Positions 34,008 through 40,268 of a stretch of 42,382 bases of DNA are shown in pieces. The translations under genes and the position numbers were made by a program. Location of the stretch: NCBI GenBank assembly GCA_017482685.1, contig JAFUMP010000016.1:1-42382 (forward strand). Direction: 5' to 3'. How positions within the stretch are numbered: position 1 is the stretch's first letter; every line of letters begins with the position of its first letter. Source of the DNA: a bacterium (lineage in GTDB: Bacteria; Cyanobacteriota; Vampirovibrionia; Gastranaerophilales; Gastranaerophilaceae). The notes under the pieces are model-generated. The model made no database searches. It was given only the letters and a program-made list of their open reading frames with translations, and was not told the DNA's origin.

Positions 34008-34158
34008 ACTAATTCTCCTTATAAAATATTTCTTTAATTTCATATTAACCTACTATTCATTTTTAAAAATCCTATATTAAATGTAAAAAATGCTTAACAT
34101 TATTCCAAAAACAAGCAATTATTTAAATAATATATACTTTATATATTTAGGAGAAACT

Positions 34159-34911
34159 ATGGCATTCTATAATTTTTTTGTAAATTTTAATATAAATTTT
34201 GCACAACCGAGATTTGGTGTTAATTTCGGTTGTTTTTCTACGCCTAATTTCTTTCCAACAATGCCATTTTTCCCACAATACAACAACATAAGCTTATTCA
34301 ATGGGCTTCCTTTTTTACAACAATACACCAACCCGAGCTTTATAAACCCACCAAGCATATTTAACTCACAAATAAACTTCCAACCACAATACAACAATAA
34401 TTGTCCTTACTTCAGCAACACCACAAATTATCTTGGAAATACCTCTTATGCACCAAACTTTGATACGTTTAGTTATACTACAAACGTCCAAGCTAGTTGT
34501 TCTATAAGCCAAAATCATTCTTCAAAAAATACATTCTTAAAAGAATATAACAAAAACAGAGGTGAAAAATTAGCCAATATAGCACTTAAAAATAGTGTTG
34601 GCTGGACAGAATACTGTGCGAAATATGTAAAAAAAGCAATAAAAGAAGCAGGATTAGGAGATTGCGGTGCAGGCCACGCATACCAAATGAGCAATATTTT
34701 AGCAAACAATCCTAATTTCAAAAAACTTTCATCAAACAATGTTAATGTAAAAGAACTACCAGCAGGTTGTGTATTGGTATATGACAAAGGAGCACAGGGA
34801 TATAGTAAAGAATATGGACACGTAGAAATTACAACAGGAGATGGTCGAGGAGTATCTGATGGCATAACTCAAAATCTCAGAAAACCAAGCGCTATATTCA
34901 TTCCAGTTTAG
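34159..34911 (+). CDS. CHAP-like hydrolase with an Asn/Phe/Pro-rich N-terminus
   Basis: 250 residues from ATG 34159, which has AGGAG 6 bases before it; the earlier ATG at 34090 has no ribosome site. Residues 1-115 are Asn/Phe/Pro/Tyr-rich and low complexity (repeated QYNN, NPSF, PNF), beginning with NINFAQPRFGVNFG. The C-terminal domain (about 130-250) has EYCAKYVKKAI (C153), PAGCVLVYD and EYGHVEI (H221), the Cys/His layout of CHAP and NlpC/P60 peptidoglycan amidases. No signal peptide is seen, so export would need another route. Overlaps the convergent porin-like gene by 4 bases. Confidence 0.7.
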   Translation: MAFYNFFVNFNINFAQPRFGVNFGCFSTPNFFPTMPFFPQYNNISLFNGLPFLQQYTNPSFINPPSIFNSQINFQPQYNNNCPYFSNTTNYLGNTSYAPNFDTFSYTTNVQASCSISQNHSSKNTFLKEYNKNRGEKLANIALKNSVGWTEYCAKYVKKAIKEAGLGDCGAGHAYQMSNILANNPNFKKLSSNNVNVKELPAGCVLVYDKGAQGYSKEYGHVEITTGDGRGVSDGITQNLRKPSAIFIPV

Positions 34912-36068
34912 AGCAAAATCTGTGTACCTACAACAATCCTATGCGAATCATCCTTAAGTTCATTTTGACAATACACATAATTCAACATAAGCTTCAAAGC
35001 TTGACCTTTTAAATAATAATTAAAACCAGTTGTGTATTCTCTCCTTATATCACTAGAGTAGCTTAAATTAGGCTTAAATTGATCATAGCGAGTGAGGATA
35101 TGTAGCTTAGGAGTTAATTTATAACCCAACGTACCATTAAAGCCTTCTGCTTTATTAGTCGATAATGCTTTAGCACCATTATATCCATCCGCCTTTGCCC
35201 ATTCAAAATTTGCAAACAAATTTTTATATTCATAATCTGCATGGGCACTTGATATAAAGTAGTCAATATTATTATGTCCTGCAGTAATTCCGCCACCTAG
35301 CTTCAATTTCCCATATTTACCATCTGTTTTTGCTAATGGCTTTAAAGAAACCAAGCCTGCAAACTCAGCTCCTGGGAAAAACTTTCTAAAATAAGTATCC
35401 GAACTATAACCACCTAAATCATAGTCAACAAAATCATAAGAGCCTTTAACCTTTACACCAACTTGTCTTGTGTTTCCAAAATTTCTTGCAATTTGAGAAC
35501 GAGAAACAAATGGTATTAAAGAAGTTGACATCCCACCTTCATATCCAGTTGCAGTTCTTATATTACCAAAATAAATCGTATGATGAGGAATTGCTCGAGT
35601 ACCTACATAAAAATTACTAGGCATAAATTGCAAAAAACTATATTGATGTTGTGGATGAAGCCTCAAACGAGCTTCATAAAAAGTCTTATCATCTCTAAAA
35701 TCACCTTTTATACCAACATTCAAATCATTAAAACCATAAGTTGTATCAGTATCATCAGTATAAAAATCAACATCTAAATTCGAACGTAAAATCCCGTATA
35801 ATTGCACAGATTCAATTGGAGATGAGTCAAAATGTTTAGTCAAAATTTCATGCAATAAATAATGTGATTTTTTAGTATCTACAATTTCCCTAGATTTTAT
35901 ACGTTGTATCTTCTCTATTAATGTAATTTCAGAAGCATCAGGCTCTATTTTTCTTTCAAATTTTTCTGGACCATCATCTATTTCGAGAATAACTTCATCA
36001 ATAGCGAAAGCTTGTTGCGAAGTTGAAACAAAAAACATCAAAAATAATAATGCCAAGATTTTTCTCAT
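34908..36068 (-). CDS. Outer-membrane beta-barrel (porin-like) protein
   Basis: 386 residues. Signal peptide 1-22 ending AFA. After a helical, charged region (25-85) the chain consists of alternating amphipathic strands with aromatic girdles (VQLYGILRSNLDVDFYTDD, FYEARLRLHPQHQY, LHILTRYDQFKPN, GFNYYLKGQALKLMLNYVY), ending in a strand that finishes at Leu. This resembles phosphate-selective porin-type barrels. It supports a diderm envelope. No ribosome site; a -10 box lies 6 bases before the ATG. Confidence 0.8.
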   Translation of the reverse strand: MRKILALLFLMFFVSTSQQAFAIDEVILEIDDGPEKFERKIEPDASEITLIEKIQRIKSREIVDTKKSHYLLHEILTKHFDSSPIESVQLYGILRSNLDVDFYTDDTDTTYGFNDLNVGIKGDFRDDKTFYEARLRLHPQHQYSFLQFMPSNFYVGTRAIPHHTIYFGNIRTATGYEGGMSTSLIPFVSRSQIARNFGNTRQVGVKVKGSYDFVDYDLGGYSSDTYFRKFFPGAEFAGLVSLKPLAKTDGKYGKLKLGGGITAGHNNIDYFISSAHADYEYKNLFANFEWAKADGYNGAKALSTNKAEGFNGTLGYKLTPKLHILTRYDQFKPNLSYSSDIRREYTTGFNYYLKGQALKLMLNYVYCQNELKDDSHRIVVGTQILL

Positions 36069-36262: not shown

Positions 36263-38272
36263 ATGGGTATGGCAGCATCTCAAGCAAGATATTTAGCGCT
36301 TGTTGCAAGAAAATCAAATTGTGAATACGAAGGTCAACAAATTAACCAAGCAAGAACAGCTTTATCTAATCAGAGTGCAAATTTGTTTAACCAAATGCTT
36401 GGCCTAAGTGTGCCAGTTCCTCCAAGCACACAAGATTTTACAAAAATACAATATTCATATAAAGATGGTATAAACGCTTCTACTATTGATAGTTGGCAAC
36501 AATTAGCAACTCCAGAAGAAGATTACAACTATGTTGTAACTCACCATTATTACACTGATGTTTATACAGGCTCACAGAAAAAATTATCAGATCCTCAAGT
36601 ACAATTTTCTAAAGGTCTAACAGCGACTCCTGCAGAAATGGATTTGGTAATTAATACGCTTACATCTACTCGAGTTGAGTACGATAAAGTTATCGAAGAA
36701 TATAACAAAATAATGAAAAATCATGAAGCTGCAGTCAAAGCTAATGACGAAGCGGTTGAAGCATACAATGTTGCATTACAACTTCAACAAGAAGCAGAAG
36801 CAGCAGTTACAGCATCGCTTAATGAATATACAACTGCAAAAAACGCTTCTGAAGCATATAAAACTAATACCTATGATCCATTAGAAACAGCTAAAAATAA
36901 CGCAGAAAATGCGTATAACAATGCAATAGAAGAGTCAAAAAACCTATCTTCATACCAAAATGAAACTAGCCCTTGGAGTTATGACGTGGCTAATCCAAGA
37001 ACTAAAAATAACGATGGGTCATATTCCTTAGGTAATGATAAATTCGTTCCAGTAAATCAATTAGAAGATACTGACTTAACAGGAAAAAATATCACTTTAG
37101 CTGATATAAATAATTCTATTCAAGCACTCAAAGATATTGGTGCATTGCCTGCAAACTTTGACACGAGTAATGCATTTATAACTATAAACGATTCAACACC
37201 AGCGCTGGCCTTTAAAGAAGATTTAGACAAGGTTTTAATTGCAACAATAGATGACACTTTAGTTCCAAGATATGATATAAATCCTGCACTGGACACATCT
37301 GTTACAAAAAAAGTTGAACAAACTCAAACTAATATAGGAGAACTTGAAAATACTTATACTCAAGCTTTAAACAGTTTTTCTATTGCAGAAGCTGAATATA
37401 ACGGACTTCTAACAGTTGAAAACGAAAAATTAGTTGCTTATAACACAGCACAATCAGCATTAGATATGGCAAATATGGCCTTAGCAACTGCAAATACAAA
37501 CAAAGAAACTGCTGCGGCTAATTTAGCAACAGCAGAAGCAGAAAAGACAAGTGCTGAAACTGACTATGGACCAACCATTAAAGCTTACGAAGAAGCTTTA
37601 GAAAAATTCGAATCAATATCATCTCCTGAATACATTGGTAACTGTGAATTAGAAATATTAGAAACACTTACAACAGATCAACTTGCAGAAATCAGACAAA
37701 TAGTAACTGATATGAAAAATCAAGAAGTTGATGCAAGTATAAATAATTGTTTTGATGCTGATGGAAATTATATTGGAGGAATTTATTCATTCAAAATGAA
37801 TGGAATTAATTACTTCACTACTTATTCTGATTTACACAATTCTTACGTAAGCGGAACTGGCAATAACCATATTGACGGTCAAATCAAAATGAACTACTAT
37901 AATGCAACCTATGTTTCTACAAAAATAGAAGAAACTGAAAAAGCTCTTCTAGAAACAGATGAGTATGGAAGATTTTCAAGTATAAGATTTGAAAACGATT
38001 CTGTAAAATACACTTTAAGCATGGAAACAATTACAGATGATGCGGCTTATCAGGATGCAATGAATCAGTATTATTATGAAAACGCTAAATATGATAAGAC
38101 AATACAAGATATAAACGCAAAAACATCTATTATTCAACAACAAGATCAGCAACTCGAATTAAGATTAAAACAACTAGATACAGAACAGAAAGCTCTATCA
38201 ACTGAAATGGATGCTGTTAAGAAAGTTGTCGACGATAACATTGACAAGTCATTCAAGACATTCGGCGGCTAG
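36263..38272 (+). CDS. Large protein with axial-filament-like architecture, unknown function
   Basis: 669 residues, strong AGGAGG site. The N-terminal helix MGMAASQARYLALVARKSNCEYEGQ-type and QARTALSNQSANLFNQ, and the C-terminal coiled coil QQLELRLKQLDTEQKALSTEMDAVKK to DKSFKTF, bracket a variable middle. The middle has long Ala/Glu/Asn coiled coils (about 130-230 and 350-450) and a globular segment (460-600). Helical ends around a variable core are typical of flagellin, hook and type III axial proteins. I have seen similar 'GMAASQAR' starts in metagenomic gut proteins, but no named family. No signal peptide, so a Sec-independent route is possible. Unknown function. Confidence 0.75.
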   Translation: MGMAASQARYLALVARKSNCEYEGQQINQARTALSNQSANLFNQMLGLSVPVPPSTQDFTKIQYSYKDGINASTIDSWQQLATPEEDYNYVVTHHYYTDVYTGSQKKLSDPQVQFSKGLTATPAEMDLVINTLTSTRVEYDKVIEEYNKIMKNHEAAVKANDEAVEAYNVALQLQQEAEAAVTASLNEYTTAKNASEAYKTNTYDPLETAKNNAENAYNNAIEESKNLSSYQNETSPWSYDVANPRTKNNDGSYSLGNDKFVPVNQLEDTDLTGKNITLADINNSIQALKDIGALPANFDTSNAFITINDSTPALAFKEDLDKVLIATIDDTLVPRYDINPALDTSVTKKVEQTQTNIGELENTYTQALNSFSIAEAEYNGLLTVENEKLVAYNTAQSALDMANMALATANTNKETAAANLATAEAEKTSAETDYGPTIKAYEEALEKFESISSPEYIGNCELEILETLTTDQLAEIRQIVTDMKNQEVDASINNCFDADGNYIGGIYSFKMNGINYFTTYSDLHNSYVSGTGNNHIDGQIKMNYYNATYVSTKIEETEKALLETDEYGRFSSIRFENDSVKYTLSMETITDDAAYQDAMNQYYYENAKYDKTIQDINAKTSIIQQQDQQLELRLKQLDTEQKALSTEMDAVKKVVDDNIDKSFKTFGG

Positions 38273-38393
38273 TAATTAAATGGAAAATTAAAAATGAAAA
38301 ATGGAAAATAGTTATAAAATTAAATAATTTTCAACTTTTTATTTTAAATTATATAAAACAATTAAAAAAAGTACAGAATAAGAAAGTAAAAAT

Positions 38394-39239
38394 ATGGCAT
38401 ACAAAAATGATGGATACCTAGTAATAGCAAATAGATACGGCTCAGCATCTGGCGACGCCAAATCAATGTTGTACGAAACCTATGATAGATTGAGAGATCT
38501 TACTGTTGCAGGTTCAGGCTCATCAGGTACAGGTTTTGAAGCTGCAGGAGGTTTCTTATACCAATTAGCAAGCTTATTTGCACCTTCTGCCTTTATGACA
38601 ACACTAGGTGGTACTACAGCAATGAATATTCCTGGTACCTCTTATTGGACAAAATATTCAGGGGGTGCTGGTGGTCTAACTGGAACATATTCATCTTTTG
38701 GGGTAAATAGCTTAGGAAATTATTCTGGATTCCCAAGCGGATATGCAGCAAGTTTAAGTGGCTATACAACAGGTGGAGCATCTTCTATTGGTAATCTTTT
38801 GTATGGATACGGCTCATCTGCAGGAGCTCCAACAGGTTTCGCTTCTGGAATAGGAAGTATTGCAGACATAGCGAGCACAGCTGCTTATGGTGTAGGAACA
38901 GCAAATGGATACGGAATAGGTGCTTCAAACATCTTAATGCCTTTAGCTGGTATTGTTTCTGGTTGGGGCGGTATAATGACAGCAGCAGCTCCGTATTTAG
39001 GCTCTTTTGGCCTTCCTGCAATTGTTATGGGTAATTTAATGCAAGGAACTTCATCTGCAGCATTATCAGCTTATCAATCAGTATCACAAAATGTTTTATC
39101 TAATGCTGATACAATACTTTCACAAAAAGTTGCAAATATAGAAACTGTATGCAAAATGCTTGATACACAAAGTGATGTTGTTAGAAAAATGCTTAAAGAT
39201 GATATGGAAAGCAAGTCAAAAGACATTGACAACTTATAA
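38394..39239 (+). CDS. Gly/Ser/Ala-rich protein of unknown function
   Basis: 281 residues. A short polar start (MAYKNDGYLVIANRYGSASGDAK) is followed by a helix and a long Gly/Ser/Ala/Tyr-rich region (about 40-215) with many GY, GG and SG steps and some hydrophobic patches. The C-terminal 60 residues form a helix (LSQKVANIETVCKMLDTQSD, RKMLKDDMESKSKDIDNL). It lies between the 669-residue protein and the small helical proteins. The low-complexity body looks like a structural or surface protein. The ribosome site is weak. Confidence 0.7.
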   Translation: MAYKNDGYLVIANRYGSASGDAKSMLYETYDRLRDLTVAGSGSSGTGFEAAGGFLYQLASLFAPSAFMTTLGGTTAMNIPGTSYWTKYSGGAGGLTGTYSSFGVNSLGNYSGFPSGYAASLSGYTTGGASSIGNLLYGYGSSAGAPTGFASGIGSIADIASTAAYGVGTANGYGIGASNILMPLAGIVSGWGGIMTAAAPYLGSFGLPAIVMGNLMQGTSSAALSAYQSVSQNVLSNADTILSQKVANIETVCKMLDTQSDVVRKMLKDDMESKSKDIDNL

Positions 39240-39278
39240 TTTTTAATAAACTAACTTAAAAAATACTATGTTTGCAAA

Positions 39279-39302
39279 ATGCTGAAACAAGTTCAGCACG
39301 AC
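39279..39302. repeat. Second copy of the ATGCTGAA..TTCAGCAT palindrome
   Basis: Matches 29527-29550 at 23 of 24 bases (one T-to-C change in the distal arm). It is a half-element, since no left end is present nearby. It lies just after the 281-residue gene. Confidence 0.8.
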
Positions 39303-39319
39303 AAAATAAAGGAATACTC

Positions 39320-39547
39320 ATGCGTGGACGGACTTTTTTTAGAATAATGATAGAAAACCTGTTTATAAACAACGCTTTTTGCAAAGCTTTGTCAGCTTTG
39401 GTAAATTTTTGTAACGAACAGAGCTATTATGGGCAAAAAAAATTAAAGTTTTTGAAAAAAATGCCGTTAAATAAAATAGAGCAAAAAAATACTCTTGATA
39501 AACGCTTTATTTTTAATACAACCTACAACTCCGGAGCTAATAAATAA
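39320..39547 (+). CDS. Small basic protein, doubtful
   Basis: 75 residues from ATG 39320, with AAAGGA 6 bases upstream. Basic and Asn/Phe-rich (MRGRTFFRIMIENLF, KKLKFLKKMPLNK), with no recognised domain. Upstream in-frame sequence runs through the palindromic repeat, so a longer form is unlikely. It may be real because of the ribosome site, or a relic. Confidence 0.4.
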   Translation: MRGRTFFRIMIENLFINNAFCKALSALVNFCNEQSYYGQKKLKFLKKMPLNKIEQKNTLDKRFIFNTTYNSGANK

Positions 39548-39603
39548 TAATAATGTTAACTTTTGTAACAAAACATAACAAAAATGAGCAATTAATAAGC
39601 TTT

Positions 39604-39623
39604 ACATGTTTTATAATACATGT
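39604..39623 (+). promoter_or_regulatory. ACATGT inverted repeat around a -10 box
   Basis: ACATGT (39604-39609), TTTATAAT, ACATGT (39618-39623). The TATAAT at 39612-39617 lies between the two arms. A repressor on this site would block the promoter of the small-protein genes that begin at 39650. The arms are self-complementary, so the site reads the same on both strands. Confidence 0.5.
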
Positions 39624-39649
39624 AGGGTCAGATTGTATAGGAGTAGCCT

Positions 39650-39919
39650 ATGCGTGAAGAACTACAAGATAATGTAAAACGGTTAGTGAATTTTATGAAT
39701 TTTGCTCGTTCGTTTTTCAAACGTAAAAATCCATTTAAGGCACTAATTGTAAGTTTACTAACAAGCTTAAAGGAAATGCTTACCATACGACAAAAACTCA
39801 AAATGGCAAAGTATCGTGTAAACTACCACAAGCATCAGCTCTATAAAATGGAAAGTTTGATAGCAGAAAGTAACGAACACACATTCCTGAAAGGCAAAAA
39901 CTTGAACGAAACAAGATAA
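39650..39919 (+). CDS. Small helical basic protein of unknown function
   Basis: 89 residues with ATAGGAG 7 bases before the ATG. It is helical and basic (FARSFFKRKNPFKALIVSLLTSLKEML, IRQKLKMAKYRVNYHKHQLYKMESLI) with heptad-like spacing in its second half. Lies 19 bases before the 109-residue gene, so probably co-transcribed with it. No family recognised. Confidence 0.65.
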   Translation: MREELQDNVKRLVNFMNFARSFFKRKNPFKALIVSLLTSLKEMLTIRQKLKMAKYRVNYHKHQLYKMESLIAESNEHTFLKGKNLNETR

Positions 39920-39938
39920 AACCAGAAGGACAAGTGAT

Positions 39939-40268
39939 ATGGGATTAATTACATCTACATTCAGAATGATGTATCTTACAGCATACAAGCTAACATTAGA
40001 ATCAAAAGTTCAATGGATTGCATCTGCGAAGATGGAATTAGTAGCATCATCAGATGAAATACTTGCTTTAGGTAATGACTTAGATCCAGATAACCCAGCT
40101 GTTAAACAATTAGAAGCTCGAAGAGATAAATTGACTATATTAGAAAAACGATTAGACTTGCAAATGCAAGAATACCAAAATCGTTTAAAAATGGTTGATG
40201 CAGAGCTTCAGTCTTGTCAGGGAGCTATTGACGGAGCTATTCAGCGTTCGTTCTCATATCAGCTATAA
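39939..40268 (+). CDS. Small coiled-coil protein sharing the C-terminal signature of the 669-residue protein
   Basis: 109 residues, AAGGA before the ATG. The N-terminus MGLITSTFRMMYLTAYKLTLE resembles the MGMAASQARYLALVARK start of the large protein in position and amphipathicity. The C-terminal 36 residues align without gaps with its end: both have an LxL heptad block, K, an E(M/L) pair and finally a D-x-x-I-x-(K/R)-S-F tail. The two may assemble together. The middle has VASSDEILALGNDLDPDNPAVKQLEARRDKLTILEKR-type helix. Unknown function. Confidence 0.7.
   Translation: MGLITSTFRMMYLTAYKLTLESKVQWIASAKMELVASSDEILALGNDLDPDNPAVKQLEARRDKLTILEKRLDLQMQEYQNRLKMVDAELQSCQGAIDGAIQRSFSYQL

What the first reader, a model, noticed from the sequence alone, without database searches (positions are those of the whole stretch)
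36263..40268. Axial-protein-like cluster: a 669-aa protein and a 109-aa protein share a C-terminal coiled-coil signature
The last 36 residues of the 669-residue and 109-residue proteins align gap-free (LxL heptads, K, E(M/L), (V/A)(V/I)D, I, (K/R)SF). Both also start with MG and a helix. A Gly/Ser/Ala-rich protein and small helical proteins lie between them. Conserved helical ends around a variable centre and absence of signal peptides recall flagellar or type III axial subunits and their partners, but no such system is in the window. It may encode an undescribed surface filament or secreted assembly.
Basis: partly seen in the sequence, partly recalled or inferred. Interest (0 to 1): 0.7.

Follow-up and report, generated by a model that had tools for sequence, protein, structure and literature searches.

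The report
Hairpin proteins of second flagellum-like secretion machine
The two proteins share an ancestor, a small two-helix hairpin, and belong to a gene family found only in those gut and environmental relatives of cyanobacteria that carry a second, flagellin-independent flagellum-like export machine, so they are probably shaft or surface parts that this overlooked machine exports.

Summary
A profile built only from hairpins of other bacterial families matches the 109-aa protein end to end (106.7 bits). It matches the 669-aa protein in two halves, residues 1-46 and 613-667 (90.4 bits; best shuffled decoy 8.8). The large protein is therefore the same hairpin with a domain inserted at the turn. 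AlphaFold agrees: helix-turn-helix for the small one; helix, beta-rich head, helix for a short ortholog of the large one. The best structural matches of that ortholog are flagellar cap, filament and FlgL proteins, though none is significant by Foldseek E-value.

The five-gene cluster is conserved across relatives. The family is in 146/146 genomes of the order, together with a second type III export apparatus (own FlhA, FlhB, FliE, FliF, FliH, FliP, rod proteins). Of 37 sampled genomes with it, 18 lack flagellin; the 17 of these tested also lack the P-ring. Across the class, the second FlhA is found in 54 of 56 family-positive and 0 of 61 family-negative genomes. Most likely these are exported axial or surface subunits of a non-motile, flagellum-derived machine previously read as flagellum loss. 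Export and assembly are inferred.

The parts
36263..38272 (+). Large axial-like protein (669 aa): hairpin with an inserted head. Codons 1-46 (36263-36400) are the N-terminal helix; codons 613-667 (38099-38263) are the C-terminal helix; the rest is the variable head with extra coiled coil
   Evidence: Split match to the hairpin profile; paralog alignment; AlphaFold of the 323-aa ortholog L139:8958-9929
38394..39239 (+). Gly/Ser/Ala-rich protein (281 aa) with conserved N- and C-terminal segments; possible pore, cap or translocator-like component (inferred)
   Evidence: Homolog next to a family member in f1, f3, f4, f7, f9 and f15; no family match
39320..39547 (+). 75-aa basic protein, conserved fifth gene of the cluster; role unknown
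   Evidence: BLAST matches in about 60 of the compared loci; ORFs of 75-79 aa at the same position in f3, f4, f7 and f15, though the window ORF itself did not match these at E 1e-3
39650..39919 (+). 89-aa basic helical protein just upstream of the hairpin gene; possible chaperone (inferred)
   Evidence: Conserved in 78 loci and in f3, f4, f7, f9
39939..40268 (+). Headless hairpin (109 aa): helix 2-47, turn DLDPDNP, helix 53-108
   Evidence: AlphaFold pLDDT 87.9; hairpin profile 106.7 bits; turn proline invariant in alignment A9

Best explanation
The 669-aa and 109-aa proteins are paralogs from a multi-copy family of two-helix hairpins. Most members in this order grew a head by insertion at the hairpin turn, as flagellins carry variable outer domains on conserved end helices. 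Shown: shared ancestry of both ends, head insertion at the turn, a conserved five-gene cluster, and near-perfect co-occurrence with a second flagellar-type type III apparatus (own FlhA, FlhB, FliP/Q/R, FliE, FliF, FliH, FliN-like protein, rod proteins FlgB/FlgC/FlgF-G-like). In many genomes that apparatus stands without any flagellin or P-ring gene. Inferred: that machine exports the hairpins without a signal peptide, and they polymerise on its rod as a short needle or filament; headed paralogs are alternative or distal subunits that display variable domains; the Gly/Ala-rich protein caps it or inserts in a membrane; the small basic proteins act as chaperones.
For: Ancestry. Size series in the same cluster slot: 109 aa (f9, f15), 137-138 (f4, f3), 249 (f7), 323-733 (f1). 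Structure: with 28 of 50 VIA rows flagellar axial proteins, best Z 9.4. Apparatus maps. Universal in the order: 146/146 for the family and for FHIPEP. Flagellin in only 19 of 37 sampled genomes, FliP and rod in all 37. FlhB in 29/29, FlgI in 10/29. Class-level coincidence: family 56/117; FlhA2 at 1000 bits or more in 54 of those and 0 of the other 61. Hairpin profile in 22/22 family-positive and 0/6 family-negative genomes. FlhA2 clade support 100/99, apart from the flagellar FlhA of the same genome. In flagellum-less genera the cluster lies about 5-6 kb upstream of fliE2-fliF2-fliH2-flhA2; in G098 a member lies about 0.9 kb from the second flhB gene.
Against: No direct evidence of export or assembly. 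In the window's own genus the cluster is not next to type III genes. The co-occurrence may reflect a single clade, so it is not many independent events. Lineages f10-f12 have a related FlhA but no detectable family member. G045 keeps the family but lacks full FlhA2. Foldseek matches are not significant (best E 0.12), and a VIA Z of 8-9 for long helices is only suggestive. The P0004 fold alone is a generic hairpin. No needle or flagellin family match was seen.
Confidence: 0.7

Rival explanations
1. The second apparatus is a decaying or partial flagellum, and the family are leftover flagellar accessory proteins.
For: Soo et al. 2014 (PMC4040986) read the partial gene sets as loss of functional flagella.
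Against: It has its own FlhA clade, coexists with a complete flagellum in the same genomes, and its genes are open and retained in flagellin-less genomes of 17 genera.
Confidence: 0.08
2. The proteins are secreted effectors or adhesins of the second apparatus rather than its shaft.
For: Up to 16 paralogs per genome with variable heads, scattered away from apparatus genes.
Against: Both ends, not only an N-terminal signal, are conserved, and headless hairpins exist that are nothing but the ends; resemblance to flagellar axial folds.
Confidence: 0.14
3. They are small helical hairpins exported by another route, like WXG100/LXG proteins of type VII secretion, or are cytoplasmic coiled-coil proteins.
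For: P0004's top Foldseek rows include a TelA-LXG/Lap complex; otherwise generic coiled-coil matches.
Against: No WxG motif; a proline turn instead; strict tie to the type III apparatus.
Confidence: 0.08

Closest known systems
Flagellin / FlgL / FliD axial proteins
   Same: N and C helices around a variable beta-rich head; best structural matches; multi-copy with conserved ends
   Different: No flagellin family match; present in flagellin-less genomes; headless hairpin forms exist
Type III needle subunit SctF (PF09392 family)
   Same: Headless form is a helix - proline turn - helix of about 110 aa; similarity of SctF to FliC/FlgL is reported (PMC3459982)
   Different: Longer than typical needles (about 80 aa, own knowledge); no Pfam needle match among those listed
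Myxococcales secretin-less NF-T3SS (Abby and Rocha 2012, PMC3459982)
   Same: Flagellum-derived, non-motile type III apparatus
   Different: Those lack FlgB/C, FliE and SctF; here rod proteins and FliE are present with a dedicated hairpin family
Partial flagella of Gastranaerophilales (Soo et al. 2014, PMC4040986)
   Same: Probably the same genes seen as an incomplete flagellar set
   Different: Here shown to be a separate paralogous system, universal in the sampled order and linked to its own protein family

Membership tests
Flagellin (PF00669) | Sequence match to the N-terminal flagellin domain | tested here: not met
   No match for P0001/P0004; none of the ten PF00669 places in this genome is a family member
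Flagellin (PF00669) | Conserved end helices around a variable central domain | tested here: met
Flagellin (PF00669) | Export by a type III apparatus and assembly into a filament | not testable with these tools
   needs experiment
Type III needle subunit SctF | Helix-turn-helix monomer with a proline turn | tested here: met
   (P50 invariant)
Type III needle subunit SctF | Match to the needle family model or solved needle sequences | tested here: inconclusive
   Not among listed Pfam or PDB matches; only the first 25 Pfam families are shown
Type III needle subunit SctF | Fold match to solved needles | tested here: inconclusive
   Not listed among the 50 rows, where generic hairpins fill the list
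Second apparatus as a motile flagellum | Flagellin in the genome | tested here: not met
   18 of 37 genomes with the apparatus have none
Second apparatus as a motile flagellum | P-ring FlgI | tested here: not met
   Absent in all 17 flagellin-less family-positive genomes tested; a single copy in flagellated ones
Second apparatus as a motile flagellum | FliG between FliF and FliH | tested here: inconclusive
   A ~340-aa protein sits there with no Pfam or NCBIfam match
Second apparatus as a motile flagellum | Rod proteins and FliE | tested here: met
Injectisome (NF-T3SS) | SctV over the NCBIfam cut-off | tested here: not met
   580-586 bits against cut-off 692; the FlhA model gives 677-701 against 772
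Injectisome (NF-T3SS) | Dedicated secretin SctC | not tested
   No secretin seen in the mapped operons; a gene set that reads like a pilus secretin with its ATPase lies ~16-20 kb away in G018 (L063, read from sequence)
WXG100 / type VII substrates | WxG in the hairpin turn | tested here: not met
   Turn is LxPxSP, no W

The most novel reading that the evidence does not exclude
An independent conversion of a flagellum into a non-motile secretion or surface-appendage machine, universal in Gastranaerophilales, whose shaft is built from a previously undescribed hairpin family that acquired display heads by insertion at the turn: a living form of the intermediate proposed between flagellum and injectisome.
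Probability: 0.4. Interest if true: 0.9.

Novelty: new variant of a known kind. Interest (0 to 1): 0.76.

Why it matters
Gut Melainabacteria are common in animals, yet no type III secretion system is described for them in the papers found here. If right, the 'incomplete flagella' of these bacteria are a dedicated second type III machine with its own axial proteins. It would give a testable case of how a flagellum becomes a secretion device, and of how axial proteins gain heads: forms of 109, 138, 249, 323 and 669 aa occupy the same gene slot within one class.

Tried and rejected
Pfam, NCBIfam and PHROGs scans of the cluster: only weak coiled-coil matches. PDB sequence searches with single proteins and profiles: no meaningful relative. 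P0004 fold search: generic hairpins, not informative. T3SS needle proteins were not listed; this does not exclude them. A possible N-terminal SFxG signal seen in neighbours was tested and is hardly enriched (3.3% vs 1.7%). Promoter and terminator scans gave chance-level counts. Co-occurrence inside the order is uninformative because both partners are universal, so the test was moved to class level. Literature searches for a type III system in this group found no description; only open-access papers were searched.

Full report
What was checked. Ungapped comparison gives a best 36-residue match of P0001 629-664 with P0004 70-105 (score 48; shuffles mean 16.2, SD 5.9, max 47) and a second at residues 1-36 of both. 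So both ends, not only the C-termini, are alike.

The family. The 669-aa protein has six headed paralogs in its own genome (435, 500, 383, 381, 496 and 331 aa), all with MG[ML]xxSQARxL... at the start and a related end close to ...LDTExxALxTEMDxVKKVIxDNIExTFKTFS, with unrelated or weakly related middles. Two further small proteins on contig C51 match weakly.

Homology settled by bridging hairpins. (f1 is the family of the window's genome; f2-f7 are other families of the order; f8-f15 other families of the class.) In other families of the class the same gene slot holds headless proteins of 109 aa (f9, f15), then 137-138 aa (f4, f3) and 249 aa (f7), while in f1 the slot ranges from 323 to 733 aa. 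Hairpins from the other families align to P0004 almost without gaps, with an invariant turn proline. A profile made only of outside-f1 hairpins hits P0004 end to end (106.7 bits) and P0001 as profile 1-46 at residues 1-46 and profile 54-108 at residues 613-667 (total 90.4 bits); all six paralogs split at the same place; the best of 600 shuffled decoys reaches 8.8 bits. Independently, the profile of 57 P0004 orthologs re-finds the big ORFs in two halves, and profile-profile comparison gives E 2.5e-9 for the N ends and 8e-8 for the C ends. In the tree of the ends the P0004 lineage, including an f9 member, groups together (92/95), so the duplication is old.

Structure. AlphaFold with 57 orthologs gives P0004 as helix 2-47, turn, helix 53-108 (pLDDT 87.9). 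A 323-aa ortholog of P0001 (L139:8958-9929, used because it lacks the long coiled-coil insert; 65-row alignment that includes P0001) gives helix 2-47, a beta-rich head 56-246 and helix 248-321 (pLDDT 88.1). Foldseek's first five PDB rows are flagellar cap or filament chains but not significant (E 0.12). VIA-align 2 lists chains of filament-cap complexes (Z 9.4 and 9.1), filament flagellins (Z 8.8, 8.6, 8.5) and FlgL/HAP-3 (Z 8.2); 28 of the 50 rows are flagellar axial proteins. This is suggestive, not proof, since long helices reach such Z values easily. P0004 alone gives only generic hairpins.

The cluster. A scan of species genomes with the Gly/Ala-rich protein found 255 relatives, 80 kept. 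In nearly all that are long enough, the order is large protein, Gly/Ala-rich protein, 75 aa, 89 aa, hairpin. The same order, with a small first gene, is seen in f3, f4 and f7, and parts of it in f9 and f15.

The second type III apparatus. FHIPEP (FlhA/SctV) was found in all 146 genomes sampled from the order, in two score classes: about 860-890 bits in flagellated members and about 720 bits in nearly all. The second class sits in operons with FliE, FliF, an unknown ~340-aa protein, FliH and, in f7, rod genes and FliI. Elsewhere lie a FliN-like protein and FliP/FliQ/FliR, FlhB and FlgB/FlgC and FlgF/G-like rod proteins. NCBIfam scores fall below the cut-offs for both flagellar FlhA (677-701 vs 772) and injectisome SctV (580-586 vs 692); FliE, FliP and FlgC pass as flagellar. 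Of 37 sampled genomes, 18 have no flagellin, yet all have FliP and rod genes; FlgI is absent from all 17 of the flagellin-less genomes tested. The FlhA2 proteins form one clade (100/99), far from the flagellar FlhA of the same genome. The window's own genome carries both: a flagellum (C1, C17) and the second system (C15, C24, C2).

Link between the two. At class level, on the same 117 genomes, the family occurs in 56 (all sampled members of f1, f9, f14, f15) and the FlhA2 profile scores 1000 bits or more in 54 of these and in none of the other 61. The two exceptions are G045, with only a FlhA C-terminal match, and G207, 56% complete, with FlhA2-like pieces of about 140 bits. The hairpin profile rings in 22 of 22 family-positive and 0 of 6 family-negative genomes. 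In flagellum-less genera the cluster lies about 5-6 kb upstream of fliE2...flhA2. In G098 a member lies about 0.9 kb from the second flhB gene. The family does not track the flagellum: it is present with or without flagellin. Caveats: the positives may be one clade, the cluster is not next to type III genes in the window's own genus, and f10-f12 have a related FlhA without the family.

Interpretation. Shown: a hairpin family with heads inserted at the turn, a conserved cluster, and a tie to a second flagellar-type export machine. Inferred: the hairpins are exported through it and build a shaft or surface array on its rod; headed paralogs vary the exposed part; the Gly/Ala-rich protein and small basic proteins are cap, membrane or chaperone components. 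Abby and Rocha (PMC3459982) proposed a flagellum-derived ancestor without secretin and with a SctF-based structure, and report SctF similarity to FliC/FlgL; a machine like the one here is what such an intermediate could look like. Soo et al. 2014 (PMC4040986) read the partial gene set as flagellum loss; the present data favour a separate retained system.

Verdict. Membership in flagellins fails by sequence; membership in needle proteins is undecided. I rate it a new variant of a known kind, with high interest because it turns a written-off partial flagellum into a testable secretion or surface machine.

Noticed in passing
L152:12223-13701 (G018:C3) and L153:7356-8822 (own genome, C34): Free-standing ~490-aa protein matching only the cytosolic C-terminal part of FlhA (FHIPEP 321-655, 169.5 bits), present across f1 genomes and ~8 kb from a headed family member in G018.
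   Followed up: partly
L154:3076-4137 (own genome, C15); L057:13293-14315; L067:13065-14024: Unknown ~340-aa protein between FliF2 and FliH2, the usual place of fliG, with no Pfam or NCBIfam match.
   Followed up: partly
L018:4716-5501 (own genome, C58): Sequences that look like CsrA and FliW lie about 3 kb from the headed paralog C58_500; a possible regulatory link (read from sequence).
   Followed up: no
L187:9158-9844 (own genome, C24): A protein with sigma-70 region 4 directly next to the second-system flhB gene.
   Followed up: partly
G160, G158, G154 (L159, L160, L161): Class families f10-f12 carry an FlhA that is sister to FlhA2 but no hairpin family; two of the three also lack FlgI. 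They may hold a related apparatus with other axial proteins.
   Followed up: partly
G045 and G122: Genomes about 97-99% complete with the hairpin family but no full FlhA2 hit; real loss or assembly gap is unresolved.
   Followed up: no
L132:5817-9764: Three headed family members in tandem upstream of the Gly/Ala-rich gene.
   Followed up: no
G012:C11:11930-16014: The flagellar-class and second-class FHIPEP genes lie next to each other in opposite directions.
   Followed up: no
window 34090-36068: A CHAP-domain protein (PF05257) and a Porin_O_P-like protein (PF07396) lie just upstream of the cluster.
   Followed up: no
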